36,781 nucleotides of DNA. Origin: Bacillota bacterium. GTDB lineage: Bacteria; Sysuimicrobiota; Sysuimicrobiia; Sysuimicrobiales; Segetimicrobiaceae. Under the pieces are notes generated by a model. It was not told the DNA's origin, did not search any database, and saw nothing but the letters and a program-made list of their open reading frames with translations. The DNA lies in contig JAJPJJ010000029.1 of NCBI GenBank assembly GCA_021324295.1, positions 1 to 36,781 on the forward strand, read 5' to 3'. Positions 7,835 to 36,429 of the stretch are shown here, in pieces (the stretch's first letter is position 1; each line of letters starts with the position of its first letter). Both the position numbers and the translations under genes were made by a program.

Positions 7835-7838
7835 TGCG

Positions 7839-8390: not shown

Positions 8391-8574
8391 GCGGAGCGTG
8401 GCGGCCTGCGGCCCGTGCTCGCCGCATCGCGATCACCGGCTGAGTCGCAAATAGCCTCATCGCGCCATCGAGCGGCCGCCTTCCACGGGCACGCCCTGTG
8501 CGCATACCGGGATGACGGGAGGACTCCCTTCCCGAGGCACGAAACACTGTCCCACACGCTGCCCGGGAGCCGCC

Positions 8575-9402: not shown

Positions 9403-9414
9403 CGGGGGAGCGCG

Positions 9415-13433: not shown

Positions 13434-13484
13434 CGCCTCCGGAGGGCGGGACCGAGAGGACGCACGGAGAGGGGAGGAATGCGG

Positions 13485-16035: not shown

Positions 16036-16164
16036 AGCATTACCCCCGTTCGGCCGCGAGCAGCGTCGAGCCCCGCGCCGCGCGCCCGGCGCCCGGGAGG
16101 TCGCCCGAGCGCCCCCGCAGCTCGCGTCCCCGGCGCCCCCGCGCGTCGCCCGCAGCGCGGCTTG

Positions 16165-17397: not shown

Positions 17398-17418
17398 GGG
17401 GCCATCCCTCCGATGAGG

Positions 17419-18807: not shown

Positions 18808-18891
18808 CTCTCCTCGCCTCCCGCACACGGGGCGCGCGAGCGCTCACACCCGGCCCGGTCGCGCCCGTCCCAGCTCCGGGCTCAGCCGGCC

Positions 18892-19827: not shown

Positions 19828-20913
19828 GGTCCGTCACCCCTGTGGCCACGGCGGCCGGCAGCGTCGCGGCGACCTGCGGCCATCCCCGCGCCCAGCGGAG
19901 GAGCCGTCCCTGCAGGGCCAGGCTGGCGGCGAGGAACAGCACGGTGAGCCCCTGAATCGCGAAGACGATCGCGACGGGAACCCCAGGCTGCGCTGCATCG
20001 TATCGGCGCCGCTGCGCAGCGCGCCGAAGAAGAACGCGGTGGCCACCACGGCCAGCGGCTGTCCGGCGCCGAGAAATGCGACGATGATCGCATCGTACCC
20101 GTAGCCCGGAGAGAACGCATCGAACAGTCGGTGCTTGAGCCCCATCACCTCGGACGCCCCACCCAACCCCGCCAGGGCGCCGCTTGCGACCATCGCGGCG
20201 ACGAGCGTCGCGTGCACGCGCACTCCCGCGTACGCCGCGGCCGCAGGGTTGGCTCCCGCCATCCGCACCCGGAAGCCGACCGCGGTGTACCCGAAGATGA
20301 GGTGGAGGAACCCCGCGAGGGCGAGCGCGAGCAGGATGCCGGCATGGGCGTCGGTGGCCGGGATGATGACCGGCAACTGAGCGGCGGCATCGAGCGGCCG
20401 CGAGTACGGGTAGGGAGCTCCGGGCTCCATGAGCGGCCCGCCCGCGAGGAAGCTCACGAGGTAGATCGCGACGTAGTTCATCAGGAGCGTGGTGATGACC
20501 TCGCTCACGCCCCGGCCGACCTTGAGCAAGGCCGGGACCAGCGCCCACACGCCGCCGGCCGCCCCGGCGGCCAGCAACGCGAGCGGGACGTGGACCACCG
20601 ACGGCAGCCCGTGGACGGAGAGACCGACCACCGCGGCCGCGAGGCCGCCCATGTAGATCTGGCCCTCGGCGCCGATGTTCACCAGCCCCGCGCGGAGGGC
20701 CACCGCGATGCCGAGGCCGGCAAACAGCAGCGGGGTCGTCTTGACCAGCGTGGTCGCGAAGCCGTAGACATCGGCAAGCGCGCCGCGCAGGATCTCCTCG
20801 TACGCCGCGGCCGGGTTGACGCCGGCGAGCCCCACCGGGACCATGCCGAGGAGAAGGGCCACCAGCACTGCCCACACGGGCAGGAGCCGGCCCGCCAGCG
20901 CGCGGCCGTTCAT
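19814..20913 (-). pseudogene. BMP-type ABC transporter permease (NupP/YufP-like) with a C-terminal frameshift
   Basis: The first 310 or so residues are a normal permease: MNGRALAGRLLPVWAVLVALLLG, LRAGLVNIGAEGQIYMGG, SEVITTLLMNYVAIYLV, SPGYGYDAIIVAFLGAGQP and FFFGALRSGADTMQRSLG. At the GGGG run (19981-19984) the frame then breaks into Ser/Arg/Pro-rich sequence ending at 19834. One frame away the expected C-terminus continues, GVPVAIVFAIQGLTVLFLAASLAL and on to TDPERR, ending at 19814. Restoring one G repairs the gene. This may be a sequencing error, a fresh mutation or slippage. The intact part starts with an ATGA overlap to the ATPase stop. If genuine, the last helix would be lost and the transporter could fail. 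Confidence 0.8.
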
Positions 20914-22487: not shown

Positions 22488-23461
22488 CGGGGCGTGATCT
22501 CGCCGGCCAGGAGCTTCTTCCGCGCGTCGTTCACCTTCGTCCGCGCCGCCGCGGGGACCGCGGCGTTGTACCGGCCGAGGCGCGCCACGGTGGGATTCTC
22601 CAGCCCGATCACGTAGTTCTTGCCCTCGAACTTGCCCGCCACCGTGAGTCTGGCGATCTCCAGCATCGCCGCCGGCATGTTCTCGATGACGCTGGTCAGG
22701 ATGTTCTTCGGCAGGAGGTCGAGCTGATCGCCGACGTACCCGACGGCGTAGACGTTCCGTTCCTTCACGGCATCAAGGACGCCGATCAACGCATGATCGA
22801 GGATGGGGAAGACCACGTCCGCGCCCTTGGCGATCTGTGCGAGCGCGGCCTCCTTGCCTTTCCCCACGTTGTCCCAGTCGCCGGTGAAGGAGACCAGAAC
22901 CTGCACCTTGGGGTTCGCGTACATGGCGCCCTGGGAGAACCCCGCGATCAGGTCCTCGATCGCTTTGAACTTTTCCGCTGCGACGACCGCGACCCTGTCG
23001 TGCCTGGTCATGCTCCCCGCTACGATGCCGCCCAGGAAGCTCACCTGGAAGTGGTTCACCTGCAGGTCGGCCAGGTTGGGGCCGGTGTTCGTGCCGTTGT
23101 CGATCACGAATTTCGTCTTGGGAAAGCGTTGCGCGACCTGCTTCGCCGCGGCGTCGAACTCCCCGCCGTGGCCGAAGACGAGGTCGAACCCACGCCGCGC
23201 GTACCCGCTGAGTACTTCCGCCTGGTCCGGCTGCGCCACGCGCTCGGTGTAGGCGATCTGGGCGCCCAGTTGCTTTTCGATGAGCTTGAGCCCCTCGTAG
23301 CCACTCTGATTCCATGCCTTGTCCGTGATGATGCCCGGCAGCGCCGCCGCGACCCGCAGCTTCGCCGGCCCCGCTCCGGACGCGAGCGGCCCGAGGGCCA
23401 GCGCCAGCAGGACCCCCAGCACGATGCCGTCCCTCGCCGACCGCCAGGGTTGTCCGGACAT
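22484..23461 (-). CDS. BMP-family ABC substrate-binding protein, minus-arm copy
   Basis: This 325-residue exported receptor has a signal segment (about 13-32, IVLGVLLALALGPLASGAG) and the same BMP domain as the protein at 13485-14471. The two share LRVAAALPGIITDKAWNQ, YARRGFDLVFGHGGEFDAAAKQ and the stretch KGADVVFPILDHALIGVLDA almost residue for residue. The start at ATG 23461 follows GGGGGAG with 5-base spacing; an upstream open extension of 48 residues is Arg/Gly-rich and rejected. It directly precedes its ATPase, so this is the cognate receptor of the importer at 18892-22487. The ligand is probably a nucleoside or related heterocycle, judged from family knowledge and the flanking deaminases. 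Confidence 0.93.
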   Translation of the reverse strand: MSGQPWRSARDGIVLGVLLALALGPLASGAGPAKLRVAAALPGIITDKAWNQSGYEGLKLIEKQLGAQIAYTERVAQPDQAEVLSGYARRGFDLVFGHGGEFDAAAKQVAQRFPKTKFVIDNGTNTGPNLADLQVNHFQVSFLGGIVAGSMTRHDRVAVVAAEKFKAIEDLIAGFSQGAMYANPKVQVLVSFTGDWDNVGKGKEAALAQIAKGADVVFPILDHALIGVLDAVKERNVYAVGYVGDQLDLLPKNILTSVIENMPAAMLEIARLTVAGKFEGKNYVIGLENPTVARLGRYNAAVPAAARTKVNDARKKLLAGEITPR

Positions 23462-23574
23462 TCCGCTCCCCCCTTCTGCCCGGCACGAGCCCGGTCTCCC
23501 TCGAACACCGTGGCCGGGGGTGGAAGGCCACGCCCGGCTCCTCGGGGTCCGCCCGGGCCATGCACCGGCCCGCT

Positions 23575-24552
23575 TCATGCGCCCGTGGCGAAGGGGACGC
23601 GGCATCCGAGTCGCGCCAGGAGAGCGCGCTCCACCATCACGTGGACCCCTTTCACCCCGTTCACCACCTGCGTGACGCGCAGGTCCGCCGCAAGGCTGGC
23701 CAGCCGGTAGGCGTCACGCCACGTCAGCTGGCAGTGCGCCTGGAGGAGATCGAGGAGTGCCCGCACGGCGGCCTGCGCCGCGCGGTCCAGGTCCTCGTGA
23801 AACCCCATCGTCACGAGGTGCGTGGGCGTGAGGCCGAGCGGCAGGGACAGGGTGAAATCGCCCCGCACCGTGAGGCGCAGCTCGCCGTCGAGGCAGGTCT
23901 CGATCGCGGTCACGCACACCTCCCCGTCGCCCTGCGCTGCGTGCCCGTCGCCGACGCTGAGCAATGCTCCGTCCACCCACACCGGCAGGAACAGCGTCGT
24001 TCCCGCTACGAGCTCCTTGTTGTCCATGTTCCCGCCGTGAGCGCGGGGTGCCGCGCTGGAGATGCGGCCCCATCGCCGGGGCGGGGCGACGCCCAGGATG
24101 CCGAAGAAGGGGCGCGTCTGCAGAGCCACGCCAGGCGGCACGGTGGCGAGACCGGTCTCGCGGTCGAGGGGGATCGTGCAGACGTCGAGCTCCTCGACCT
24201 CCTCGGGGAACAGGCCGGCGAGTGGCCTGACAACGTTGTATCCGTAGGACGCTCCGAGCCGGATCGACAGGATGTCGACCTGAAGCACCTGGCCCGCCCG
24301 GGCGCCGTCGACAAAGATCGGGCCGGTCAGGATGTGCGGGCCCGGACCGCGGTCTCGGACCTCGGCGAAGATCAGCGGAAGCTCCGGGGGCATCCACTCC
24401 GCGGGGATCGGGTAGTCCGGAGAGCCCGAGACGGTGCGGATCCGGACCACGTCCCCGCTGCGCACGTGGGCCACGGGCGCCAGCGCCGCGTCGAAGAACC
24501 CCCAGTGGACGGTGGCCGGTGAGGCATCCAGGCGGTGCACGGCGGGCGGCAT
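23575..24552 (-). CDS. Acetamidase/formamidase family protein (FmdA/AmdA)
   Basis: This 325-residue cytoplasmic amidase of the FmdA/AmdA family hydrolyses formamide, acetamide or similar small amides to ammonia and an acid. Signatures include VHRLDASPATVHWGFFDA at the start, GPIFVDGARAGQVLQVDI, and the metal-site segment HGGNMDNKELVAGTTLFLPV. GALLSVGDGHAAQGDGEV, then a family-like C-terminus (TQVVNGVKGVHVMV), complete it. The ATG at 24552 is the only start near the conserved N-terminus, and no Shine-Dalgarno is visible. It lies between carbamate kinase and the BMP transporter on the same strand, with gaps of 238 and 113 bases, and would release ammonia and formate from ring-opening products. 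The 238-base gap upstream holds nothing I recognise. Confidence 0.9.
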   Translation of the reverse strand: MPPAVHRLDASPATVHWGFFDAALAPVAHVRSGDVVRIRTVSGSPDYPIPAEWMPPELPLIFAEVRDRGPGPHILTGPIFVDGARAGQVLQVDILSIRLGASYGYNVVRPLAGLFPEEVEELDVCTIPLDRETGLATVPPGVALQTRPFFGILGVAPPRRWGRISSAAPRAHGGNMDNKELVAGTTLFLPVWVDGALLSVGDGHAAQGDGEVCVTAIETCLDGELRLTVRGDFTLSLPLGLTPTHLVTMGFHEDLDRAAQAAVRALLDLLQAHCQLTWRDAYRLASLAADLRVTQVVNGVKGVHVMVERALLARLGCRVPFATGA

Positions 24553-24790
24553 CGGTGAGGAGGATACGTCGTGCCGTTCCCGGAACCCTCTCGGCGCGAC
24601 GGGACGCGTGTGGGACCCCACGATCGCGGGCGCCTCATCGTTTGCGCTGTCGTGCACGTCCGTTGCGCGGCTCGCAGACGATGCCGCGCGAGCGCCTGCC
24701 GTTCGGAGAGGCTCCGCACGCGCGTAGACCGTGGCTCGGTGCGGAGCGAGCCGGAGGGCCCGGGGCTCATAAGCACCGTCCGCACCGCCG

Positions 24791-25750
24791 TCACCGGCGA
24801 TCGCGCGGGATGGTTTCCCCTGGCTCGTACCAACGGATCGGCTCGTTGCCGGGACGGACGCGCGTGCCGGCGCCGTCGTGGAGCAGCGCCGGGGCATCCT
24901 CGAGCGCGCCGATCGCCGCCAGGCCCCCGGTGGCCTCCACGAACCGGCAGGCCGCCTCCACCTTTGGGCCCATCGACCCCACCGCGAAGGACAGGCGCCG
25001 CAGCGCCGCCGGCGGCGCCTGCCTGATCGGCCGCGCCGTCGGGGTGCCCCAGTCGCTCCACACCGCGGCGACGTCGGTGAGCATGAGCAACACGTCGGCA
25101 TGGAGCTCGATGGCGAGCAGCGCCGCCGACAGGTCCTTGTCGACGACGGCCTCAACACCCCGGAGCCTGCCGTCCGGGTCGATCACCACCGGGATGCCGC
25201 CTCCACCCGCGCAGATTACCAGCACCCCGGCCTCCACGAGCAGCCGGATGGCGCTCAACTCGACGATTCGGAGCGGCTCCGGGGACGCGACGACCCGGCG
25301 GAATCGGTCGCCGTCGCGCGTCACCGCCCAGGCCCGCTCCACGGCCAGGCGCCGCGCCTCCTCCTCCGGATAGCTCGGGCCGATCGGCTTGCTCGGTGTC
25401 CCGAACGCGGGGTCGCCGGCGTCGACGGCGACCTGGGTGACGATCGTCGCGACGTCTCGCCCGGGCAGCTCGTTCCGCAACTCCTGCTGGACGATGTACC
25501 CGATCATCCCCGCGCTCTCGGCGCCGAGCACGTCGAGCGGGTAGGGGCGAACGCCACGGTACGCCTCGTTTTGCAGCGCCAGGAGACCGACCTGCGGCCC
25601 GTTGCCGTGGGTCACCACGACCTGGTGGGCGCGGGCGATGGCGGCGATCGACCGGACCGCCCGCGCGACGTTGCGCCGTTGGGCGTCTGCCTCGAGCGGC
25701 TCACCCCGCTTGAGGAGCGCGTTGCCGCCGAGCGCGATGACGATTCGCAT
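24791..25750 (-). CDS. arcC: Carbamate kinase
   Basis: This 319-residue amino-acid-kinase-family enzyme catalyses carbamoyl phosphate plus ADP to ATP, CO2 and ammonia, the energy-yielding last step of arginine deiminase, agmatine, oxamate or allantoin routes. The start [13 protein letters not shown] and then [65 protein letters not shown] and [13 protein letters not shown] are all carbamate kinase signatures. The ATG at 25750 is the family start. No carbamoyltransferase or deiminase is in the window, so the source of carbamoyl phosphate is unknown. Neighbours point to purine or pyrimidine catabolism. Confidence 0.95.
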
Positions 25751-26070
25751 CAGCCGGCCGCCGCCCGCATTTCCCGCGCGTGCCATGCTCCGTCCACCGA
25801 TGATAGGCCCGATTCGATGCCCTCCTGCGGCGGTCCTTGCCGGGCTGGGCACCGCTGGGATGCACCGAGCACGCGGGACCCGATCTGCGCGCTCTGCAAT
25901 GGTCGGGCGGCGGCCTGACTCTCCCCGGGAGATACGCGTTCCCGATCCACCAACAGGTGAGTGCCACTGCCTCCGACGCCACATGGCGCCGCTCAGAGCA
26001 CGGGAGATGCAGAAGGTCGAGGCGGCAGAAAGTCGTCGAGGCCAAACCCAGTCGCTGGCCGCCTGGACAT
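25751..26070 (-). other. 320-base gap between carbamate kinase and the LacI gene
   Basis: No gene, RNA or clear promoter is seen. The frame upstream of arcC stays open across the gap, but its translation shows no domain and a biased Arg/Ala/Gly composition, so it is treated as non-coding. It must hold the 3' end of the regulator message and probably the arcC promoter. Confidence 0.4.
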
Positions 26071-27156
26071 TCACCGTCCTCCCCCGCAGGTTCTGCGGAC
26101 GACCAGCTCGGCCGGAAGGAGCTCAGCCTCGCGCGGCACCTGTTTGCCACCGATGGCTTCAAGGAGGCGCTCCACGGCGCGTGCCGCCTGCTCAGCGATG
26201 TGCTGCGCGACCGTCGTAAGACGGATCCAAGGGTGGGCGGCCAGGGTGATATCATCAAAGCCTACGACTGCGAGATCGCCGGGGATCTCGAGTTGGTGGT
26301 CCACCGCGTATTGGATCGCCTCCAGCGCCATGAAATCGGTCGTGGCAAAGACGGCCGTCGGCTTCCTGTCGCGCTGAAGCAGCTCCTTCATGGCGTTGTA
26401 CGCGTCGCCCGGGTGGTATTGCGTATAGAAGACCGGCGCGGCCTGCATTCGGGCTGCCCTGAGCGCCGCCTGGAATCCATCGATGCGCTCCACGACCGTC
26501 GAAAGGTTCGCCGGGCCTGCGATGACAGCCAGGCTTTGATGGCCCAGACCGATCAGGTGATTCGCGGCTGCAGTGGATCCGCCATAGTTGTCGCAGCCCA
26601 CGAACGATGCACGCGCCCGATGCAGTCGCCGGTTAAACAGCACCACCGGGAACCCCCTATCAAGCAACGCCTCGATCGCCGGCTCCTCAAGACGTGCCTG
26701 CCCGAACAGAAAGCCGTCCACGCGCTGCCGCAACAGAAACTCGATGACCTGTGCGCAACGTCCGGATTGCGAGGCGGCGAGCCCAAGGATGGTCCGAAAT
26801 CCGGACTTCTCCGCCCCGTGGATGACGATCTCGGCCGCTTGGGAGTTGAACGGGTTTGTGAGGTCATCGAGCACGAGACCGATCGTGGCGGTGCGACCGC
26901 GAGCCATGGAGCGAGCAACATCGTTGGGTCTGTACGATAGGTAGGAGATGGCATCCTCGACTCGGGCGCGCGTCTCCGGGCTCACCGGGGCACTGTGGTT
27001 GAGCACACGGCTGACGGTGGCCGTGGAGACGCCCGCCGCTTGCGCGACATCCTCGATGGTGATGGGGGCACTGATGCGTGCCTCCCCTTGCAGGCGCGGC
27101 GACCGCACAGAACGTCGGGGAGGGACGGCGGGTAGGCGGCGGCTGCGGCGCGTCAC
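26071..27156 (-). CDS. LacI-family transcriptional regulator
   Basis: This regulator has up to 361 residues. A LacI helix-turn-helix ([22 protein letters not shown], about 33-54) is followed by the hinge ([20 protein letters not shown]) and a periplasmic-binding-protein-like sensor domain. The latter contains [45 protein letters not shown] and [21 protein letters not shown]. Such proteins bind palindromes with a central CpG and are usually released by a sugar. The start is uncertain: GTG 27156 is listed, but about 30 residues precede the helix-turn-helix and there is no good ribosome binding site. It lies downstream of the GH88 gene on the same strand and probably binds the two operators at 29679 and 29788. 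Confidence 0.9.
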
Positions 27157-27308
27157 TGCACAGGAAACCGCGGCGCCGGCGTCCCCTGGAACGCACAGAC
27201 GCCCTCGTCCTCATCGCGGCCTGCGAAAGTAAGATCACGCAAACGGAGTCCGCAGCGAAGCCCGCCGGCTTGCAGCCGGGCGGAAGCGCTAGGGCAGAAC
27301 ACGCGTAT

Positions 27309-27314
27309 ATTATA
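27309..27314 (-). promoter_or_regulatory. Possible -10 element for the LacI gene
   Basis: TATAAT on the minus strand overlaps the stop codon of the GH88 gene, about 150 bases before the LacI start. No -35 match lies 16-18 bases upstream, so support is weak. It could provide separate expression of the regulator. Confidence 0.25.
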
Positions 27315-28422
27315 TCATCACTGAGCGGCGCGGGCTCGCCGGCGAATCCGAAACCCTCCCAAGGCAGGCCAGAGTGAAGTAGTCGCCCCAAATGACCGCG
27401 CTGTCGACCCCCTCGTTGTGAGGCCTCGAATAGCACGCGTGGAGCAGGAGACCGTCGTCGTCCCCCACGTTCAGGCACGTGGCCAGGGCCGAAGAGAGCA
27501 ACCGGCGTGCTTCCCCGTAGCGTTCGAGATCCATGAGGCCGTGGGCAGCGATGACGGCAGCCGACGAGTCCAGGGGGGCCCGCGGGTCGGTGTCGGCAAA
27601 GTCCCACGGCGGCACGGCGCGCTCACCGAGGCGAGTGAGGAAATAGTCTGCGGCGCGGTTTGCAGCCGCCCAGAGCGCCGAATCGCAGGTCTCCCGCCAT
27701 GCCCGTCCAAACCCTGCGATCGCCCACGCTTGCCCTCGTGACCAGCAGGATCCCGCGCTCATGCCCTGGAAGGTCCCGCGGTCGAGCACGGTGCCGGTAT
27801 CCGGGTCGAAGCGAAGCCGGTGGTATGTCGAGCCATCGGGCCGGAAGTACGTCCGCGACGCGGTCAGCGCGTGTGCCCTCGCCACTTCGCGGAGGGCCGC
27901 GTCTCCGGACCACCAGAGCAACGGCAGGTTCATCATCGTATCGATCGTCGAGGATTCACGGGCGCGGCGATCCTCGAGAGGTCCCCACGCGGCCAGGTAG
28001 CCACCCGGTTGCAGCCGTGACGCCAGCGTCCGGGCAGCGCGCAGCCCGACGGCACGAAGATGGGCATCCCCCGTCAGCTCGGCGCCAAGCCCAAAGCTCG
28101 GCCAGAAGAGGAAGCCAATATCATGTGTGTTGAGATCCCCGGCGCGAGGTTCCAGCTCGGGCAAGCGGGACGCCACGGCATCAGCCCACCGCGCGTCGCC
28201 CGTGTGCTCATAGAGCCGCCAGAGGAAGCCCATGCTGAACCCCGCCGTCCAGTTGCCGTGCGACCAGCCCTGCTCGCTCCAGCGGCCAGAAATCTCGGCC
28301 ATCAACCGACGCCAGCGACCACCCTCCGTCACATGAGGGAACCCCGGCCCTGTATCCGAGATCAGCCGCTCGCCTTGCACCTGCGCCACGTGCCACGCGC
28401 GCACAAACAAGTCGCCGCTCAC
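27310..28422 (-). CDS. Glycoside hydrolase family 88 (unsaturated glucuronyl hydrolase)
   Basis: This 370-residue (alpha/alpha)6-barrel enzyme has no signal peptide and so is probably cytoplasmic. GH88 enzymes hydrate the vinyl ether of unsaturated uronic acid residues left by polysaccharide lyases, releasing a keto-uronate. Both acidic residues known from the Bacillus enzyme are in place: Asp101 in NTHDIGFLFW and Asp161 in STIDTMMNLPLLWW. GSCWSRGQAWAIAGFGRAW and PPWDFADTDPRAPLDSSAAVIAA also match. The GTG at 28422 follows AGGAGG with 6-base spacing, 11 bases after the CoA-transferase stop. No polysaccharide lyase or ketodeoxyuronate pathway gene is nearby, so the substrate may be an unsaturated or modified uronide. 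Confidence 0.9.
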   Translation of the reverse strand: MSGDLFVRAWHVAQVQGERLISDTGPGFPHVTEGGRWRRLMAEISGRWSEQGWSHGNWTAGFSMGFLWRLYEHTGDARWADAVASRLPELEPRAGDLNTHDIGFLFWPSFGLGAELTGDAHLRAVGLRAARTLASRLQPGGYLAAWGPLEDRRARESSTIDTMMNLPLLWWSGDAALREVARAHALTASRTYFRPDGSTYHRLRFDPDTGTVLDRGTFQGMSAGSCWSRGQAWAIAGFGRAWRETCDSALWAAANRAADYFLTRLGERAVPPWDFADTDPRAPLDSSAAVIAAHGLMDLERYGEARRLLSSALATCLNVGDDDGLLLHACYSRPHNEGVDSAVIWGDYFTLACLGRVSDSPASPRRSVMI

Positions 28423-28432
28423 GGCTGGCCTC

Positions 28433-29608
28433 CTAAACGATGCCCTGGGCGCGCAATTCCGTGATCTCGGCCGACGAGTAGCCCAGTTCTCGCAAAATCT
28501 CCTCGCTGTGCTCTCCAAGGCCGGGAGGGCGGCATCGGAAGGGCGGCGGGTTCCCATCGTACCGTAACGGATGGCCAAGGACACGGACCCTGCCGGCGCG
28601 AGGGTGGTCGAACTCCAGAAATGACTGATTCCACAGCACCTGGGGGTCCTCCACCACCTCAGCGTATCCGTTCACGGGGGCACACCAAATCCCGGCCGGT
28701 CGCAACAGCTCAATCCATTCGCGAGTCGTGCGCTCTCGCAGGATCTCGGCCAGCACCGCAGCAATCTCCTCACAGCGCTCGAAGCGATCATCCTCCGTGA
28801 ACGCGGCCAGGGCCGCGCTGCCCGTCGCTTCGGCCAACCGCGGCACGGGGCTCAGCGAGATGGCAATCCAATGATCGCGCGTCCGATAGATGCCATACGG
28901 AGCCTCGTGGAATGTGCTCGCGAGCCCGTTGGGGCTGCGAGGTCTGAGGCGTCCGCCGTTCAAGTAGTACCCGAGCGGCTCAATCTGCAGATCGAGGGCG
29001 GCGGCGAGAAGGTTGACATCGACACGGCATCCCCTTCCGGTCTTGTGGCGTCCCTGCAACGCGGCCAGGACGCCGAGAGCAAGCAACGTGGCGGCGTGCT
29101 GGTCAACGACCGAAGCCCCGACGGGGGTGGGCGGATCGTCAGCTCCACCCGTCAGCGACGCCAATCCCGATATCGCCTGAACGAGGAGATCCTGTCCCGG
29201 ATACTCGGTGTACGGACCCCCGGGGCCGTACCCCGAACAGGAACAGTAGATCAATCGTGGGTTTTCACGCGCGACCACCTCGTATCCGAAGCCCAGTTTG
29301 GGCAGCACCCCAGGCCGGTAGTTTTCAACGAGCACGTCCGAGACGCGGATGAGTCGCCACAGGATTTCCTTGCCGGCGCCCGTCTTGAGGTCCAGCGTTA
29401 GGCTGCGTTGGTTACGGTTGGCAAGGAGGAAGAAGACGCTTTCACCGTTCAAGTAGGTGTCCGCACCCGACCAACTCCGCTCCCAGGCTCCACGGCCGCG
29501 AGGCTCGACCTTCACGACGTCCGCCCCGAGGTCTGCGAGCACCTGCACACCGGAGGGCCCTTGCAGGAAGTGGGTCAAGGAAATCACCTTGAGGCCTGTC
29601 AGAAACAT
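28433..29608 (-). CDS. Class III (CaiB/BaiF family) CoA-transferase
   Basis: This 391-residue enzyme moves CoA between carboxylic acids through an aspartyl-CoA intermediate. The opening LTGLKVISLTHFLQGPSGVQVLADLGADVVKVEP is typical. LANRNQRSLTLDLKTGAGKE, VLVENYRPGVLPKLG and the catalytic Asp140 in YPGQDLLVQAISGL follow, then TGRGCRVDVNLLAAAL and PVNGYAEVVEDPQV near the C-terminus. It starts at an ATG with GGAGG five bases ahead, and is the first minus-strand gene downstream of the LacI operators. Together with the enoyl-CoA hydratase-fold protein on the other strand it suggests acyl-CoA chemistry, perhaps activation of an acid released from a glycuronide. The acid is unknown. Confidence 0.92.
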   Translation of the reverse strand: MFLTGLKVISLTHFLQGPSGVQVLADLGADVVKVEPRGRGAWERSWSGADTYLNGESVFFLLANRNQRSLTLDLKTGAGKEILWRLIRVSDVLVENYRPGVLPKLGFGYEVVARENPRLIYCSCSGYGPGGPYTEYPGQDLLVQAISGLASLTGGADDPPTPVGASVVDQHAATLLALGVLAALQGRHKTGRGCRVDVNLLAAALDLQIEPLGYYLNGGRLRPRSPNGLASTFHEAPYGIYRTRDHWIAISLSPVPRLAEATGSAALAAFTEDDRFERCEEIAAVLAEILRERTTREWIELLRPAGIWCAPVNGYAEVVEDPQVLWNQSFLEFDHPRAGRVRVLGHPLRYDGNPPPFRCRPPGLGEHSEEILRELGYSSAEITELRAQGIV

Positions 29609-29676
29609 CGCAGCCTCCGTAGCGCCTCAGATCTCTGAGCCCTGGCTTCTTCCTCGCGTTTGCGGCCTTGCTTGGT

Positions 29677-29705
29677 AGTGTAAGCGTTTACAACCCCACA
29701 AGCAA
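29677..29705 (-). promoter_or_regulatory. Candidate promoter of the CoA-transferase/GH88 operon
   Basis: On the minus strand TTGCTT (29705-29700), a 17-base spacer and TACACT (29682-29677) form a modest sigma-70-type promoter, about 70 bases ahead of the CoA-transferase start. The LacI-type operator at 29679-29692 covers its -10 and spacer, so a bound repressor would block it. Confidence 0.4.
29679..29692. promoter_or_regulatory. LacI-family operator 1
   Basis: TGTAAGCGTTTACA is a near-perfect palindrome with TGTAA/TTACA arms and a central CpG, the classic LacI/GalR-type site. It overlaps the candidate minus-strand promoter. The likely ligand is the LacI protein encoded at 26071-27156. Confidence 0.75.
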
Positions 29706-29715
29706 GGCGGGGCTC

Positions 29716-29744
29716 CTGTAGTACGAACGCATGTTCGCTATAAT
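29716..29744 (+). promoter_or_regulatory. Candidate promoter of the sugar importer operon
   Basis: A consensus TATAAT lies at 29739-29744 with a weak -35 (CTGTAG, 29716-29721) at 17-base spacing. An inverted repeat, CGAAC-GCAT-GTTCG (29724-29737), fills the spacer and may bind a further regulator. The promoter sits between the two LacI-type operators. Confidence 0.5.
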
Positions 29745-29787
29745 CCTCGCCGCGCCGATGGAAGGAACCCGGGTCGCGGACGGTTAA

Positions 29788-29801
29788 TGTAATCGCTTAC
29801 A
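29788..29801. promoter_or_regulatory. LacI-family operator 2
   Basis: TGTAATCGCTTACA shares arms and central CpG with operator 1, whose centre is 109 bases away. It lies about 40 bases downstream of the candidate plus-strand start point, where bound repressor would block elongation or form a loop with operator 1. From here to the importer start at 29994 nothing else is recognised. Confidence 0.75.
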
Positions 29802-29993
29802 ACGCCGGCCGGGCGGCCCATCGCTCGGCGAGGAGACCACTCAGACGAGGACGATCAGCGGACCACACGTCTGCCTGTTCGCGGGGATCGCCACGACTTC
29901 TGCCCAAGCGACGCGCAGAAGGCCCCTACGGCCGCAATCCAGTTCTGCCACCCCGCATATCGCTCTTCTGGGCACCAGTCAAGGGGAGGGAGG

Positions 29994-31235
29994 GTGAAGT
30001 CGATGAGGATTCGGCAAGTCCTGGGCAGGGCTGAAGTCCCCCGGGGTTCGGCAACAACGGCGCGCCGCGCCCGAACGGGCTGGACGTCCATAGTCGGCGC
30101 GCTTGCCCTGGTGGCCCTGGTGGCTGCGACTTGTGGAGGTGCCGCGAAGGTGGTGACCGCAGCGGAGCGGTGCACGCCGGAGGCGCTGAAGCGCCAGAAG
30201 TTGCCGTCTTGGGTCAAGATGCCTAGCGCCACGTCGCTAACGACACGAGGTAATGTGGGCGAGACGCCGACCTGGTACACCGAGGTGAATATCACTCCCG
30301 GCCAGGTTCGGCAGGTCTGCGCTAAGGGCCTCAGGGCAGCCTTTCTCAACTGGTCCTCCGGCGCCTACAACCAGGCGGTCCTCGCCGGCGCTAGAGACGC
30401 CCTGGACGCCATGGGGATCAAGCTCGTTGCGGTGACGAACTACAACTTCGACGAAGCGCAACTGGCGACCGACGTGCGGAACGTGATGGCCCTCAAGCCT
30501 AACATCATCCTCTACAGCGGAGTGGACCCAACGGCCGACCGCGCGGCGCTGCAGCCCGCGGTGAACGCCGGCGTGGCCGTGGTCTCCTTCGCCAATGCTC
30601 CGGGGGGATGGACGACTAACAAGCCGAAGAACTTTGTGACCCTGATCTCGTACGATACATATGGGAATGGCGCCGCGGTGGCCCGCGAGGTTGCCAGACG
30701 ATTCCCGAACGGCGCGAAGCTTGGCATGATTTACTTCGACGCCAACTACAAGCTCGTGAATGAACGGGAGAAGGGCTTTGTGAACGAACTCAGCAAGACC
30801 AACGTCAGGATCGTCGTCCGCATGCCGATGAGCGATCCTCACAAGACCCAGGAAATCACCTCTGCGATGCTGGCGCGTTACCCGGATCTCAACGTGATTT
30901 TCGCGCCATGGGACCTTCCCGCCGACGGCGTCCTGGCGGCCCTGAACGCGGCGGGCAAGAAGATCCCGGTGGCGCACATCGACCTTGGGTTCACCGGTGC
31001 CACAGAGATCGCGTGCCGCACCGGGCCGATCTTCGTCATGTCGTCGCAGTTGGTGTACGAATGGGGACGCACCGGCGCCATCGCAGCCGCGCTCCATGCA
31101 CTAGGTCGACCGGTCCCGCCGTACGTCGTGGTGCCGGTCTTCGCCGCAACGAAGGACAACCTTCGGGAAGCCTGGGATCTGGCCTACGGCGGGGTCGTGC
31201 CTCTCCCGGATGCGGCGCAGAAGTGCTTGCATTGA
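29994..31235 (+). CDS. Sugar ABC transporter substrate-binding protein (periplasmic binding protein type 1)
   Basis: This 413-residue exported protein has a basic N-terminus and hydrophobic segment (about 31-46, TSIVGALALVALVAATC); the Cys could be a non-standard lipidation site. The mature part has the ribose/xylose-type fold: LRAAFLNWSSGAYNQAVLAGARDALDAMGI, LKPNIILYSGVDPTADRAALQPAVNAGVAVVSF, LGMIYFDANYKLVNEREKGF and DLNVIFAPWDLPADGVLAALNAAGK. GTG 29994 follows AAGGGGAGG with 5-base spacing. It is the first gene of the plus-strand operon under the LacI operators, followed by its ATPase and permease. A sugar or glycoside ligand is likely from the family and the GH88 neighbour. Confidence 0.9.
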   Translation: MKSMRIRQVLGRAEVPRGSATTARRARTGWTSIVGALALVALVAATCGGAAKVVTAAERCTPEALKRQKLPSWVKMPSATSLTTRGNVGETPTWYTEVNITPGQVRQVCAKGLRAAFLNWSSGAYNQAVLAGARDALDAMGIKLVAVTNYNFDEAQLATDVRNVMALKPNIILYSGVDPTADRAALQPAVNAGVAVVSFANAPGGWTTNKPKNFVTLISYDTYGNGAAVAREVARRFPNGAKLGMIYFDANYKLVNEREKGFVNELSKTNVRIVVRMPMSDPHKTQEITSAMLARYPDLNVIFAPWDLPADGVLAALNAAGKKIPVAHIDLGFTGATEIACRTGPIFVMSSQLVYEWGRTGAIAAALHALGRPVPPYVVVPVFAATKDNLREAWDLAYGGVVPLPDAAQKCLH

Positions 31236-31318
31236 GAAGCGACACCGGTGTGCTTGGAGCGGCACCTCGCTGGGCGGTGAAGACGGAGATGGCGAGTTCG
31301 CTGTTCCGGGGTTGAGCG

Positions 31319-32902
31319 ATGCACCGGACGGAGGCCTCGCTATCGTTCGCGCTCGAGCTGCTGGGCATCGTCAAGGTCTATGGAACCACAGAAGTGCTCC
31401 ACGGAGTCGACCTGCGTGTCCGACCGGGCAGCATCCACGCCCTGGTCGGGGCTAACGGAGCGGGGAAGTCGACCCTGCTGAAGATTGCCGTGGGGGCAAC
31501 GCCGGCGACGGCGGGGCGTGTCATCGTCAACGGCTTGGAGCGGCACTTCTCAGGCCCCCTCGAGGCGCGCAGGGCGGGAATCGGCATGGTATTCCAGGAA
31601 CGAAGCCTCGTGCCCGATCTTTCGATCGTCGATAACATCTTTCTCAACGGCGAAATAAGGCGCGCCGGGCTGATCGATGGGCGCGCCGAGGTGCGGGAGA
31701 CCCAGCAGATATTTGAACGGCTGGGCGTGCAGATTCCCCCGACGGCGCTCGTCGGGCGACTCGGCGTCGCGGATCAGCAGATGGTTGAGATCGCGAAGGC
31801 GCTGCGGTTGGCGACCTCCGTGCTCATCCTCGACGAGCCCACTGCCGCGCTAACCGAACGAGAAGTGCAGCGACTCTTCGCCGTCGTTCGGCAGATCGCG
31901 AGCTCGGGTGTCGGGATCGTCTACGTGTCGCACAGGCTCGCCGAAGTGTTCGAGCTCTGCGACGAAGTGACCGTCCTCCGCGACGGCCGTACCGTCATGT
32001 CGACCCCGGTCCGCGAGACCAGCATGCGCGACGTGGTGGAGGCGATCGCCGGCGGCATCTTCCAGCATGCCCACGAAGGCGCTGCCACGAGCGAAACACA
32101 GACCCACCGCTCCTTACGGAGCGGCGAGCGGTCGCCTCTGTTGGAGGTACGTGGGCTACACGTCGGTACCAAGCTGCGGGACATTTGCTTCGAGGTCTGT
32201 GCAGGTGAAATCGTCGGCGTGGCGGGCCTAGCCGGGAGTGGCCGGTCCACGCTGCTCGCTGCGTTGTTCGGGGTGATCCCCCGCCGCGCAGGCGAGATAC
32301 GCGTCGCCGGACGTCGCGTGAATCCGAGCTCTCCCGCGGAGGCGATCCGGCAGGGCCTATACCTCATTCCGGAGGACAGGAAGACGGAGGGCCTCGTGCT
32401 CTCGCATTCCGTCGAGGCGAACGTGGTCATTTCTATCCTCAGGCGCCTCTGCCTCGGTCCTCTGATCAACGGCAAGCGCAGCGCCGAGGTGGCTCTCCAG
32501 ACCATCGCGCAACTCCGCATCCAACCGGCCGACCGGCGGCAGCCGGTCGAGTGGTTGTCAGGTGGAAATCAGCAGAAGGTCGTGCTCGGGAAGGCGTTCA
32601 ACGCGCGCTGCCGGGTGCTTCTTCTCGATGAGCCCACCTTCGGCGTCGACGTGCGCTCGAGGACCGAGATCAGCGCTCGCGTTCGGGCCTTCGCCGATGC
32701 AGGCAACGCGGCCGTCTGGGTCACGTCCGACCTGCGGGAGCTGCGGGAGGTCGCGGATCGAATCCTCATCTTGGCCGACGGCACCTTGCGCGACATCGTC
32801 CCGAACTGGCCACAACGGCGCGGGGAATCTGAAATAGCTCACCTTATGCAACCGCGATCCGTCGTCCACGCCGATCCAGCAGTCCGTGACGACCACGGGT
32901 GA
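31319..32902 (+). CDS. Sugar ABC transporter ATP-binding protein (RbsA/MglA type)
   Basis: This 527-residue ATPase has two nucleotide-binding domains. Domain 1 has Walker A GANGAGKS (44-51), a signature-like LGVADQQMVEIAKAL and Walker B VLILDEPTAALTE. Domain 2 (from about 275) has the usual degenerate Walker A LAGSGRSTLLAAL, then the signature LSGGNQQKVVLGKAF and VLLLDEPTFGVDVRSR. This pattern is characteristic of carbohydrate uptake transporter-2 ATPases. The ATG at 31319 lies 83 bases after the binding-protein stop with only a weak ribosome binding site. It energises the permease that starts 6 bases after its stop. Confidence 0.93.
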   Translation: MHRTEASLSFALELLGIVKVYGTTEVLHGVDLRVRPGSIHALVGANGAGKSTLLKIAVGATPATAGRVIVNGLERHFSGPLEARRAGIGMVFQERSLVPDLSIVDNIFLNGEIRRAGLIDGRAEVRETQQIFERLGVQIPPTALVGRLGVADQQMVEIAKALRLATSVLILDEPTAALTEREVQRLFAVVRQIASSGVGIVYVSHRLAEVFELCDEVTVLRDGRTVMSTPVRETSMRDVVEAIAGGIFQHAHEGAATSETQTHRSLRSGERSPLLEVRGLHVGTKLRDICFEVCAGEIVGVAGLAGSGRSTLLAALFGVIPRRAGEIRVAGRRVNPSSPAEAIRQGLYLIPEDRKTEGLVLSHSVEANVVISILRRLCLGPLINGKRSAEVALQTIAQLRIQPADRRQPVEWLSGGNQQKVVLGKAFNARCRVLLLDEPTFGVDVRSRTEISARVRAFADAGNAAVWVTSDLRELREVADRILILADGTLRDIVPNWPQRRGESEIAHLMQPRSVVHADPAVRDDHG

Positions 32903-32908
32903 CCGCGG

Positions 32909-34012
32909 ATGATACATGGGGCGAAGGGCACCCCCGCGGCCAACCGGATGCGCGACAATCCCGGCCGGTCCTCAGAGGGCTTCGCGGAAACAGCGTCCTC
33001 GCCAAGCAAGGATGCATGCACGCTGCGCCGGTGGCGAGAGTACGCGCGCACGTCTCAAACCGCGCTCTTCTCGGTCGAAAGCTCGCTTCTCTTGATCCTG
33101 GTCATGGTTGCCCTGATCGGCGTGTTCTGGGTCCTGCTACGGGACACCGCGTTCATGAGCGTCGGCAACTTCATGAACATCGTGAAAGCGAAAACACCGG
33201 TGATCGTGATGGCAGTGGCCAGCGTGTTCGTCATCAGTGCGGGCGAGATCGACCTGTCCATCGCGTCAGTGCCTCCCGTCGTCGGGACGCTCGCCGCGAC
33301 GCTGCTCGCGCATGGATACGGAATGTGGATCGCAGTGGCAGCGGCGCTGGCGGTAGGCTTGAGCGTCGGATTGATAAACGGCGCGATCACGGTCCTGATC
33401 GGGATTCCATCGTTCATCGTCACCCTGGGCATGATCGGCGCGCTCGAGGGAGCTGCGCGGCTCATCTCCGGGGAGCAGGCGGTCCCGATTACAAACGAGG
33501 TCTACACCTCAAACTTCGGGTCAGGAAGCCTCGGCCCAGTCCCCGTGCTGCTGGCGTGGACGCTCGGGGTTGGAGTCCTGGGCACCGTTGTGCTACGCAG
33601 TACGCCGTTCGGCAAGGCTGTGCTCGCAACAGGAGGCAACGAGGTGGCCGCCCGCTATTCGGGAGTCCGAACCCGCCGCATCAAGGTCGCCGTCCTCATC
33701 CTCAGCGGGCTCGCGGGGGCGCTGGCCGGCCTGCTCTATACGGGACAGCTCGCCTCGGGCCGCTACGATCTCGGCGGAGGTGATCTCCTCACAGTCCTCG
33801 CCGCGGTTGTCATTGGCGGAACCGCACTCAACGGTGGCCGCGGTAGCGTGGAGGGCGCGATCGCTGGAGCCCTGTTGGTAGGCCTCGTGAGCAATGGCGT
33901 GATTCTACTCGGCTTCTCCACCCCGCAGCAGCAGATCTTTTCTGGCCTCATCATTGTACTCGCGGTCGCGCTGAGCGGGCGTCGCCTGCGCCAACTACGA
34001 TCGCTGCGATGA
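32909..34012 (+). CDS. Sugar ABC transporter permease (RbsC type)
   Basis: This 367-residue membrane protein has a hydrophilic N-terminal tail of about 50 residues, then some nine helices. The conserved motif is MAVASVFVISAGEIDLSIASV, with IGIPSFIVTLGMIGALEGAARLISG, TPFGKAVLATGGNEVAARYSGVRTRRIKVAV and VVIGGTALNGGRGSVEGAIAGALL. These are diagnostic of RbsC-like permeases. The tail is longer than usual, so an internal ATG such as 32948 could be the true start. It completes a full binding-protein/ATPase/permease importer. Confidence 0.92.
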   Translation: MIHGAKGTPAANRMRDNPGRSSEGFAETASSPSKDACTLRRWREYARTSQTALFSVESSLLLILVMVALIGVFWVLLRDTAFMSVGNFMNIVKAKTPVIVMAVASVFVISAGEIDLSIASVPPVVGTLAATLLAHGYGMWIAVAAALAVGLSVGLINGAITVLIGIPSFIVTLGMIGALEGAARLISGEQAVPITNEVYTSNFGSGSLGPVPVLLAWTLGVGVLGTVVLRSTPFGKAVLATGGNEVAARYSGVRTRRIKVAVLILSGLAGALAGLLYTGQLASGRYDLGGGDLLTVLAAVVIGGTALNGGRGSVEGAIAGALLVGLVSNGVILLGFSTPQQQIFSGLIIVLAVALSGRRLRQLRSLR

Positions 34013-34049
34013 GCTTGCCGGCGGACTCGATAGGAGGGGGGAACGAGGC

Positions 34050-34802
34050 GTGATTCGCCTGGACGTAGAGGAAGCGGTCGCCACCATCACCATCGACCGC
34101 GCTGAGAAGGCCAACGCCCTTCCCGAAGCCGGGAAGCGGGCACTCGCCGACACAATCGTCGCAGCGGGACAGCGCCCCGATGTGACGGCCTTGGTCGTGA
34201 CGGGAGCGGGAGACCGGTGCTTCTGCGCCGGGAGCGACATCGGCGAGATGCGGAACTTCAACCCGGAGGCGATGTACCGCATGCTCGGAGCGGAGCGTGA
34301 CATGTACCTCGCGGCGCTTTCCTCGCCGAAACCGGTCATCGCGGCTGTCAACGGATTCGCTCTCGGAGCTGGATTGATCCTCGTCATGGCCTGCGACTAC
34401 GCGGTTGCCACTGCTACCGCGCGGTTCGGGACTCCGGAGCTGACGATCGGCGTGGCTGCTCCCCTTGAAGGGTTCCTGCTCCCATGGATCGTAGGGCTGG
34501 GGCATGCGAGACGGCTGTTCTATACCGGGCAACAGCTCGATGCGGTTGAGGCCCAGCGGCTCGGCCTCATCCACGAGGTGACCAACCCCGAGAGGTGTCG
34601 ACCGCGTGCCATCGAAGCGGCGAGAGAGATAGGTTCCCTGCCGGGCACAAGCTTCGGGGTCCAGAAAGCGCTCCTTCGCCAGCTCGTGTCGAGCGGACAC
34701 CTTGAGTCCGTCATCGAGGCCAGCCGGTATGCCACGAGCTTACAGTTCGCGGATCGGACAACGGCCGAGGCTCTCGACCGATCCGTGGCGCGGCGACGAT
34801 GA
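34050..34802 (+). CDS. Enoyl-CoA hydratase/isomerase-family protein
   Basis: This 250-residue crotonase-fold protein opens with LDVEEAVATITIDRAEKANAL. The first oxyanion-hole segment is RCFCAGSDIGEM, and the second oxyanion-hole segment is NGFALGAGLILVMACDYAVA. Of the two glutamates of classical hydratases, the one in GGCE is Ile110 here, while that in the PE(L/I) motif is Glu130 (FGTPELTIG). A one-Glu site is more like an isomerase or another crotonase reaction. The GTG at 34050 follows AGGAGGGGGG with 8-base spacing. Its stop overlaps the next small gene (ATGA), linking it to the amidase pair. Its CoA substrate may come from the divergent CoA-transferase. Confidence 0.88.
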   Translation: MIRLDVEEAVATITIDRAEKANALPEAGKRALADTIVAAGQRPDVTALVVTGAGDRCFCAGSDIGEMRNFNPEAMYRMLGAERDMYLAALSSPKPVIAAVNGFALGAGLILVMACDYAVATATARFGTPELTIGVAAPLEGFLLPWIVGLGHARRLFYTGQQLDAVEAQRLGLIHEVTNPERCRPRAIEAAREIGSLPGTSFGVQKALLRQLVSSGHLESVIEASRYATSLQFADRTTAEALDRSVARRR

Positions 34803-35008
34803 GTGCGGCCGACTTCGTCGACCGACGGCTCGGCTCCTCTGCCAGACTGATCCCTGCAGCCGACCGGGAGTGGCTGGCCCGGGAGACGTCTTTCATTGCG
34901 GAGGTATCGCGCAGGCTCGCCGAGGTGGAAAAGAGCCCCCTCGATTTCGCGGCGATGTCTCCCCTATCCCCTGCCGGACCAAGTAGCTTATGGAGCCTCG
35001 AGAGCTGA
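34799..35008 (+). CDS. Small GatC/AtzG-like protein, probable amidase partner
   Basis: This 69-residue protein starts in an ATGA overlap with the crotonase-fold gene and overlaps the amidase start by 19 bases, so it is clearly in the translated chain. The sequence (ARLIPAADREWLARET, then VSRRLAEVEKSPLDF) resembles the pattern of GatC and AtzG proteins: an N-terminal short helix, a helical DREWL segment, a long helix ending in a L-x-EV-x motif, and an extended Pro/Ser-rich tail. GatC-type subunits wrap around and stabilise GatA-type amidases. Identity is low, so this rests on size, pattern and position. Confidence 0.6.
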   Translation: MSAADFVDRRLGSSARLIPAADREWLARETSFIAEVSRRLAEVEKSPLDFAAMSPLSPAGPSSLWSLES

Positions 35009-36429
35009 CCATCCACGAGGCGAATGAGCACCTCGCCGGAGGACGATTGTCCGCCACCGAGCTCGTCTCCTCGGTCCTCGATCAAATCGGTCGCCTCAAC
35101 CAGCACATCAATGCCTATATCACGGTCCGCCCCCACTCCGAGCTGCTGGACGAGGCTCGGCGGAGCGACCAGCGGCGCAGGCGCGGAGAATCGCGGGGCC
35201 CAATGGAGGGCATTCCCATCGCCCTGAAGGACAACTTTGAGACGGCGGGGTTGCGGACGACGGTCGGGTCGAAGATACTCATGGACTGGGTGCCTAACCG
35301 GGACGCTACCGTGGTAAACAAGCTGCGACGCGCGGGGGCCATCATCGTCGGGAAGCTCAACATGCACGAGTTCGCGGACGGGCCGACCAACGACAACCCT
35401 CACTTCGGGCGAACGCTGAATCCGTGGGCCCCGTCCCGGACCCCGGGCGGCTCCAGCGGCGGGAGCGCAGCCGCGCTCGCAGCTCACATGTGTCTTGGAG
35501 CCACGGGAACCGACACGGGGGGATCGATTCGGACACCGGCCGCGTTCTGCGCCGTCGTCGGGCTCAAGCCGACGTATGGGCTCGTGAGCCGGGTAGGCGT
35601 CTTCCCCTTCTCTTGGTCGCTCGACCACGCTGGGCCGATGGCTCGGACGACCCGCGATGTCTCGATGCTCCTCGCAGCGATGGCGGGATACGATCCTGAG
35701 GACCCAGTGTCGGTGTCGGGCCCTCCAATTGCGCCACCCCCTGATGACGCCGATATCGGGGGTGTGGTCATCGGGATTGAAAAATCTTACCTCACCGCGC
35801 TCATGGAAGACGGCGTCCGGCGCAACTTCGACCGCGCTGTTAGCCGCCTGGCGGAGTTGGGGGCGAGAATCGAAGAGGTACGGATGCCCCGACTCGAAGT
35901 CAGCCTGCCAGCGGAGGTCGCCATCCTCTTCCCCGAGGCGGCCTCCGTGCACCGGAGCTTCCTCGACGAGCGCCCAATGGACTACGGTGAGGACGTCCGG
36001 CGATCGCTCCTGTCAGGACGGCTCTACCGGGCAGATGATTACGTGGAGGCTCAGCGGGTCCGATCGGTCCTTCGGCGGGACCTGACGGCTACGTTCGAGA
36101 GGGTCGACGTCCTCGCGACGCCAACGGTCAGCATCGAGCCTCCCGAGTGGGGACAGGATACCTTCATCGTTCAGGGACGCCGCCTTGACCTCTTGAACGC
36201 GTTCATCCGCTGTACTGCACCGTTCAACCTGACAGGGCACCCTGCACTCTCCGTCCCGTGCGGCCTCACGGGCAACGGCCTCCCCGTTGGGATCCAGCTG
36301 GTCGGGCCTCCATTCTCAGAGGCGAAGCTCCTCCGGCTTGGATACGCATTCGAGGTAGCGCGCGGACCGTTTGCACGCCCTCCGGGCATCGCGAGCACCT
36401 CGAGAGCCGACGGGAGTGGCTCCTGCTGA
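34990..36429 (+). CDS. Amidase signature family hydrolase (GatA/AtzE-like)
   Basis: This 479-residue hydrolase of the amidase signature family has the Ser-cisSer-Lys triad: Lys80 in PIALKDNFE, cis-Ser156 in [11 protein letters not shown] and nucleophile Ser179 in [35 protein letters not shown] and the C-terminal [32 protein letters not shown] are also typical. It hydrolyses an amide or biuret-like bond, or could amidate in a GatCAB setting. No gatB is present, so a free amidase is more likely. It has no Shine-Dalgarno of its own and depends on coupling to the small upstream gene. It is the last gene of the LacI-controlled plus strand. Confidence 0.93.
   Translation: [479 protein letters not shown]

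What the first reader, a model, noticed from the sequence alone, without database searches (positions are those of the whole stretch)
26071..36429. Regulon mixing GH88 glycuronidase, CoA-transferase, crotonase-fold enzyme, sugar importer and amidase
GH88 enzymes normally sit with polysaccharide lyases and ketouronate genes. Here the partners act on acyl-CoA and amide bonds. A glycoconjugate of an organic acid or amide (for example a uronide-linked aromatic or an N-acylated sugar acid) would fit. I know of no described pathway with this set.
Basis: inference. Interest (0 to 1): 0.56.

Follow-up and report, generated by a model that had tools for sequence, protein, structure and literature searches.

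The report
CoA-primed glucuronide-splitting gene cluster
A gene set found in distantly related soil and water bacteria combines a sugar-acid hydrolase with enzymes of fatty-acid chemistry, and probably cuts glucuronic acid off other molecules by a coenzyme-A route that has not been described.

Summary
Two perfect LacI-type operators lie in the divergent promoter gap; the pattern occurs nowhere else in the 4.02 Mb genome, so both units look like one regulon. The set recurs: 18 GH88 loci (two near-duplicate pairs) in at least four phyla carry a GH88, a CoA-transferase (family III, type I, or both) and a dehydratase (crotonase, MaoC, or both), with importers that change from locus to locus. None of 60 other GH88 loci from the same scan do. 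The GH88-linked family III CoA-transferases form one clade apart from 32 others, most from the same genomes. My best explanation: the CoA enzymes do not degrade an aglycone but prepare the uronic acid itself. CoA-transferase activates the C6 carboxylate, the dehydratase removes the 4-OH as from a 3-hydroxyacyl-CoA (D-glucuronide has the right stereochemistry for a crotonase), and GH88 hydrates the resulting unsaturated uronide, releasing the aglycone. CoA-free versions are published (GH154 with GH88; P29_PDnc with GH105); I found no CoA version in print. Weak points: no biochemistry, the window crotonase lacks one catalytic glutamate, and the amidase is unexplained.

The parts
28433..29608 (-). 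CoA-transferase family III (CaiB/Frc type); proposed to put CoA on the C6 carboxylate of the glucuronide and take it back
   Evidence: PF02515 E=6e-106; formyl-CoA transferase 1p5h catalytic Asp (D169, number recalled) aligns with the Asp of VVDQH, which is invariant in 12 aligned relatives; one clade with the other 17 GH88-linked copies
27310..28422 (-). GH88 unsaturated glucuronyl hydrolase-like protein, 370 aa, GTG start at 28422
   Evidence: 1vd5 E=4e-46, catalytic Asp pair kept; GTG preceded by AGGAGG; grouped with CoA-type GH88s in the tree
26071..27156 (-). LacI-family regulator (start codon uncertain)
   Evidence: PF00356 and Peripla_BP_3
29679..29692 (.). operator TGTAAGCGTTTACA
   Evidence: one of only two TGTAANCGNTTACA sites in the 4.02 Mb genome
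29788..29801 (.). operator TGTAATCGCTTACA
   Evidence: the second of the two sites
29994..31235 (+). sugar ABC importer, substrate-binding protein
   Evidence: Peripla_BP_4 E=1e-28
31319..32902 (+). sugar ABC importer, double ATPase (RbsA/AraG type)
   Evidence: PF00005; NCBIfam best AraG, below its cut-off
32909..34012 (+). sugar ABC importer, permease (AraH/RbsC type)
   Evidence: PF02653 E=3e-32
34050..34802 (+). crotonase-fold enzyme; proposed dehydratase of the uronyl-CoA
   Evidence: ECH_1 E=2e-41; E164 equivalent kept, E144 equivalent is Ile (rat numbering recalled)
34990..36429 (+). amidase-signature hydrolase, role unknown (amide or carbamate in the substrate?)
   Evidence: PF01425 E=5e-124; relative in the Aureimonas cluster L024

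Best explanation
The cluster takes up a small glucuronide and cuts it inside the cell in three steps. (1) CoA-transferase moves CoA onto the C6 carboxylate of the glucuronosyl group. (2) The dehydratase (crotonase here; MaoC elsewhere) removes C5-H and C4-OH, the alpha-H and beta-OH of a 3-hydroxyacyl-CoA, giving a 4,5-unsaturated uronyl-CoA; CoA-transferase passes the CoA to the next substrate and frees the unsaturated uronide. (3) GH88 hydrates the vinyl ether, and the aglycone falls off together with 5-keto-4-deoxyuronate. LacI senses the substrate or a product and controls both units. Shown: genes, order, operators, recurrence, clades, kept catalytic residues. Inferred: every reaction, the substrate, the order of steps, LacI binding the operators.
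For: Recurrence: W, L013, L015 and 15 of the 80 scanned loci hold GH88 with both a CoA-transferase and a dehydratase; 0 of the 60 scanned loci outside the top group do. GH88 tree of 64 rows: the label needs 6 changes v 17.2 shuffled (0 of 500). Replacement by unrelated enzymes: CoA-transferase III or type I, crotonase or MaoC; of the 18 loci 6 have crotonase only, 5 MaoC only, 7 both. CoA-transferase III clade 18 of 18, SH-aLRT 99. The one clade member with neither nearby, L028, has both 17-20 kb away on its contig. Stereochemistry: syn elimination from a 3S-hydroxyacyl-CoA with ring O in the kept alpha position gives C4 S, C5 S, which is D-glucuronide. GH88 N-termini are not signal-like by a crude hydropathy test, as a CoA-dependent (cytosolic) route needs. 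Possible downstream enzymes for the oxidised product occur nearby: ALDH, KdgD-like DHDPS, GarL-like aldolase. Precedent: dehydratase plus GH88 (PMC12269599) or GH105 (PMC8511951).
Against: No biochemistry. The window crotonase, L021's and one of L019's two lack the E144-equivalent Glu (Ile/Val), which normally handles the water, so the window enzyme may be an isomerase or need another leaving group. Related CoA-transferase/crotonase/MaoC operons exist without GH88 (L111, L114, L115, L176, L177), so these enzymes also serve other acids. Four loci (L017, L026, L027, L036) add an acyl-CoA dehydrogenase, which the scheme does not need. Seven loci have both dehydratases, unexplained unless they serve different epimers. 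L018 has MaoC but no CoA-transferase of this clade in its held genome. The amidase has no place in the scheme.
Confidence: 0.57

Rival explanations
1. One reading: GH88 frees an organic acid or amide from a uronide, the amidase opens an amide, and CoA-transferase plus crotonase degrade the freed acid by beta-oxidation.
For: Amidase behind the window crotonase and in L024; acyl-CoA dehydrogenase in 4 loci; CoA-transferase/MaoC/crotonase operons without GH88 exist, one with an acyl-CoA synthetase and a thiolase (L177).
Against: The aglycone would have to be similar across phyla while importers and accessories change; acyl-CoA dehydrogenase is confined to 4 of the 23 mapped loci and no thiolase was listed at E<=1e-15 among 54 of 81 unclassified neighbours (4 families not shown in 81); the unsaturated uronide that GH88 needs would have no source in the cluster.
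Confidence: 0.2
2. Same scheme, but the group removed from C4 is not water: a 4-O-methyl (plant glucuronoxylan), 4-O-sulfate or 4-O-acyl group is eliminated from the uronyl-CoA.
For: The missing E144 equivalent in the window, L019 and L021 crotonases suits a leaving group that needs no acid; sulfatases beside GH88 in L029, L032, L033.
Against: Most linked crotonases and all 14 MaoC keep the full dehydratase residues; nothing in the window points to methyl or sulfate.
Confidence: 0.12
3. Ordinary unsaturated-oligosaccharide use: lyase products made elsewhere are taken up and cut by GH88, and the CoA genes serve unrelated central metabolism.
For: GH88 catalytic residues are canonical; typical Rhizobium GH88 loci do sit with a heparinase-type lyase gene.
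Against: No polysaccharide lyase among the families listed for 54 of 81 unclassified neighbours; HepII/III tblastn hits 1 of 84 loci, L067, not a CoA locus; the CoA-transferase clade tracks this GH88.
Confidence: 0.08

Closest known systems
BcGDH (GH154) + BcGH88 of Bacteroides caccae, PMC12269599
   Same: Saturated non-reducing-end glucuronate is dehydrated to the 4,5-unsaturated form, then GH88 cuts it
   Different: One CoA-free dehydratase proposed to use tyrosines; part of a polysaccharide pathway with a lyase; no CoA-transferase, crotonase or MaoC
P29_PDnc + GH105 of Formosa agariphila (ulvan), PMC8511951
   Same: Dehydratase makes the substrate of an unsaturated uronyl hydrolase
   Different: CoA-free, unrelated enzyme, GH105 instead of GH88, ulvan oligosaccharides
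CaiB/CaiD carnitine pathway of enterobacteria (mechanism recalled; listing only)
   Same: Family III CoA-transferase plus crotonase, CoA recycled from product to substrate, beta-hydroxy acid dehydrated
   Different: Substrate is carnitine; no glycosidase; no glycosidic bond is cut
GH88 unsaturated glucuronyl hydrolase of Bacillus sp. GL1 (1vd5/2ahf; organism recalled)
   Same: Family, catalytic Asp pair
   Different: Normally follows a polysaccharide lyase; different genomic partners
Keto-glycoside oxidation-elimination-hydration pathway (recalled; one search found only papers that hold its title words)
   Same: Glycosidic bond cut by elimination and hydration after activation
   Different: Activation is oxidation at C3, not a CoA thioester at C6

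Membership tests
GH88 unsaturated glucuronyl hydrolase | Sequence similarity to solved family members and the catalytic Asp pair | tested here: met
   phmmer 4e-46 to 1vd5; both Asp aligned, invariant in 18 aligned relatives; Pfam PF07470 25.0 bits, just under 26.6
GH88 unsaturated glucuronyl hydrolase | Hydrates 4,5-unsaturated uronides | not testable with these tools
   no assay
CoA-transferase family III | PF02515 match and the catalytic Asp (D169 of formyl-CoA transferase) | tested here: met
Enoyl-CoA hydratase with full dehydratase residues | Both catalytic Glu (E144, E164 of the rat enzyme; numbers recalled) | tested here: not met
   window: E164 kept, E144 is Ile; among the 14 called crotonases E164 is kept in 14, E144 replaced in 3 (window, L019, L021)
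Crotonase superfamily | ECH_1 profile over the domain | tested here: met
   PF00378 2e-41
CoA-free uronate dehydratase + GH88/GH105 pair (GH154, P29_PDnc) | A GH154 or P29_PDnc gene beside GH88 | tested here: inconclusive
   tblastn of a Rhizobium DUF2264 protein (that DUF2264 is GH154 is recalled; one search found no paper with both names): 0 of 84 GH88 loci; no P29_PDnc sequence was available
Polysaccharide-lyase-coupled GH88 locus | A polysaccharide lyase beside GH88 | tested here: not met
   none in the window's Pfam results nor among families listed for 54 of 81 unclassified neighbours

The most novel reading that the evidence does not exclude
Bacteria in several phyla break the glycosidic bond of glucuronides through a CoA thioester of the sugar: a uronyl-CoA is made, dehydrated like a fatty-acid intermediate and hydrolysed by GH88. 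Crotonase and MaoC versions may serve the C4 epimers (D-glucuronides by syn, D-galacturonides by anti elimination).
Probability: 0.5. Interest if true: 0.85.

Novelty: new variant of a known kind. Interest (0 to 1): 0.72.

Why it matters
Cutting a sugar-acid glycoside through an acyl-CoA would join two chemistries that are treated as separate, carbohydrate hydrolysis and fatty-acid-type CoA chemistry, and would be a third, independently assembled answer to the question how a terminal uronic acid with a free 4-OH can be made a GH88 substrate. It gives a function to gene sets that annotation pipelines would split into 'GH88', 'CoA transferase' and 'enoyl-CoA hydratase', and it is directly testable with a few purified proteins and a commercial glucuronide.

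Tried and rejected
Considered and rejected: that the CoA enzymes act on the GH88 product. 5-keto-4-deoxyuronate has no hydroxyl beta to its carboxylate, so a crotonase has nothing to remove (reasoning). That the set is a chance neighbourhood: from the counts, a family III CoA-transferase within 8 kb of a given gene has odds of about 5, 1, 2, 11, 0.6 and 2 percent in six of the genomes (hand calculation; fragments counted as genes).

Led nowhere: paper searches for a CoA-dependent uronide route (nothing relevant beyond PMC12269599); plasmid searches: the GH88s listed are at most 40% identical, and the three regions opened have no CoA-transferase or crotonase annotated. The first gene-calling script gave false long ORFs and was replaced. 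A structure prediction was not run: the families are clear by sequence.

Rows dropped: the GH88 tree used 64 of 94 rows (every second control row kept); the cluster map used 23 of 85 sequences, the HMM map all 85. In the tree script L018, L023, L028, L030 and L031 were labelled 'no' by hand. The HMMs were built from the mapped loci, so bit scores favour them; the trees do not depend on that. Near-duplicates counted apart: L026/L027 and L032/L033. L050's CoA-transferase hits in two pieces and was used as called, not mended.
Full report
WHAT IS THERE. The window is one whole 36,781-base contig of a 4.02 Mb, 129-contig genome. Region 26071-36429 holds a minus unit, CoA-transferase family III > GH88 > LacI, and a divergent plus unit, sugar-binding protein > double ATPase > permease > crotonase > amidase. 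GH88 falls just short of Pfam's cut-off but is clearly an unsaturated glucuronyl hydrolase by sequence (1vd5, 4e-46) with both catalytic Asp kept; one solved chain, 2ahf, carries Asn at the first of them. Its true start is probably the GTG at 28422, 10 bp behind the CoA-transferase stop, after an AGGAGG (read).

ONE REGULON. The gap between the units holds TGTAAGCGTTTACA (29679-29692) and TGTAATCGCTTACA (29788-29801). TGTAANCGNTTACA with up to one mismatch has 2 matches in the window and none in 100 shuffles. In the whole genome the exact pattern has only these 2 sites; the reversed control has 0. Binding by this LacI is inferred.

RECURRENCE. A same-family genome (G003) has TRAP importer, GH88 and MaoC on one strand and CoA-transferase (74% identical), crotonase and a hydrolase on the other. 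The window's own genome has a second GH88 (40% identical) with crotonase, a type I CoA-transferase (PF01144, another family than III) and a different importer, beside a divergent GntR regulator. A scan of 84,980 species genomes found 162 GH88 relatives and returned the best 80. Mapped with HMMs, 15 of the 80 carry both a CoA-transferase and a dehydratase: L017, L019-L022, L024-L027, L029, L032-L034, L036, L050. With the window, L013 and L015 that makes 18. Titles and the tree's origin labels place them in Actinomycetota, Verrucomicrobiota and Pseudomonadota, besides the window's own group and two groundwater MAGs named only 'bacterium'. The 60 loci L035, L037-L049 and L051-L096 have no CoA-transferase; three have a weak crotonase hit. 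The other five of the top 20: L018 and L031 have MaoC only; L030 has a CoA-transferase at the edge of the fetched DNA and a MaoC somewhere in its genome; L028 has CoA-transferase and crotonase 17-20 kb from GH88 on the same contig; L023 has neither and groups with the non-CoA rows.

DEHYDRATASES. The small protein in 14 of 23 mapped loci is MaoC, a hot-dog-fold (R)-hydroxyacyl-CoA dehydratase family, with a GD..xNH motif in all 14 (meaning of the motif recalled). Crotonase is in 13 of 23. Of the 18 core loci, 6 have crotonase only, 5 MaoC only, 7 both. So the same two steps, CoA transfer and dehydration, are filled by unrelated families in different loci, the strongest sign that the pair of reactions is what is conserved.

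TREES. GH88 (64 rows of 94): the CoA label needs 6 changes against 17.2 in shuffles (0 of 500 as low); the labelled rows fall in two groups, one with the window, the other with the own-genome paralogue L015, plus one long-branch second copy, L027_15966, placed apart. CoA-transferase III: all 18 GH88-linked copies form one clade (SH-aLRT 99); the four background rows inside it are those same copies fetched a second time, and the other 32 background enzymes, most from the same genomes, lie outside. Both trees are 'quick' trees without bootstrap.

RARITY. In a survey of 386 genomes (43 of the window's order, 343 others) 15 have any GH88 at E<=1e-40, and only G000 (two) and G003 (one) score above 400 bits. 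The set is scattered and rare.

MECHANISM. GH88 enzymes need a 4,5-unsaturated uronide. No lyase is seen beside these genes: none in the window, none among the families listed for 54 of 81 unclassified neighbours (four families not shown), and one HepII/III tblastn hit in 84 loci, at L067, outside the set. A glucuronosyl group has a free carboxylate at C6 and a hydroxyl at C4, beta to it: it is a 3-hydroxy acid. CoA-transferase plus crotonase is the textbook pair that activates and dehydrates such acids, as CaiB/CaiD do with carnitine (recalled). A geometric check shows that syn elimination from a 3S-hydroxyacyl-CoA to the E-enoyl product, with the ring oxygen in the retained alpha position, requires C4 S and C5 S: D-glucuronide. 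D-galacturonide (C4 R, C5 S) would need anti elimination from the 3R form. That crotonase works by syn elimination on 3S substrates is recalled knowledge.

PRECEDENT. PMC12269599 (abstract, passages and Discussion read) shows that a GH154 protein dehydrates saturated terminal glucuronate for GH88 in Bacteroides caccae, seen before, its authors say, only with P29_PDnc and GH105 in ulvan use (PMC8511951, abstract and Discussion read). So dehydrate-then-cut is known; the CoA-dependent form was not found in ten searches of an open-access library, which leaves out most subscription papers. Two Rhizobium GH88 loci have a heparinase-type lyase and a DUF2264 gene and no CoA genes.

AGAINST. Missing Glu in the window crotonase, GH88-free sister operons, an acyl-CoA dehydrogenase in four loci, both dehydratases in seven loci, L018 without a CoA-transferase of this clade, and the unexplained amidase. 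None refutes the scheme; together they keep my confidence at 0.57.

DOWNSTREAM. Aldehyde dehydrogenase (8 of 23), KdgD-like DHDPS protein (4), GarL-like HpaI aldolase (4) and FAH hydrolase (5) recur near GH88. Oxidation of the GH88 product at C1 would give 5-keto-4-deoxyglucarate, the substrate of KdgD and of GarL-type aldolases (recalled); none of these is in the finding's own cluster.

Noticed in passing
window 14458-25786, minus strand: Operon-like run of amidohydrolases, a PnrA-type ABC importer (Bmp binding protein, double ATPase, two permeases), an acetamidase/formamidase and a carbamate kinase, at higher G+C (about 0.71) than the GH88 cluster (0.65): looks like a ureide or nucleoside-amide degradation island next door.
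   Followed up: no
window 8512-14471, plus strand: CN-hydrolase, amidohydrolases, an FrsA-like esterase and a second Bmp binding protein; the window as a whole is rich in amide-cleaving enzymes.
   Followed up: no
L015 (G000:C24) 2144-9873: Second CoA-type GH88 cluster of the same genome: crotonase, GH88, type I CoA-transferase, MalEFG-like importer, divergent GntR/UTRA regulator.
   Followed up: partly
L111 (G000:C51), L114 (G004), L115 (G023): MaoC, crotonase and a more distant CoA-transferase III with ABC transporter genes but no GH88; in L111 also an FAD oxidoreductase and an NMT1/THI5-like binding protein: a sister system for another acid.
   Followed up: partly
L018 4252-6547 and L021 4201-7692: GH88 beside a beta-keto acid cleavage enzyme (BKACE) and a 3-hydroxyacyl-CoA dehydrogenase-family protein: perhaps another route for the released sugar acid.
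   Followed up: no
L026, L027 from 15960: A second, very divergent GH88 copy directly behind the CoA-transferase; L027's lies on the longest branch of the GH88 tree.
   Followed up: no
L180 and L181 (Rhizobium plasmids): GH88 loci with heparinase II/III and DUF2264 genes plus an ABC importer and YesL, a useful contrast to the CoA type.
   Followed up: partly
L176 (Aureimonas, G387:C1:379600-397000): About 9 kb beyond the L024 cluster lies a second CoA-transferase III, crotonase, MaoC, TRAP and LacI operon without GH88.
   Followed up: partly
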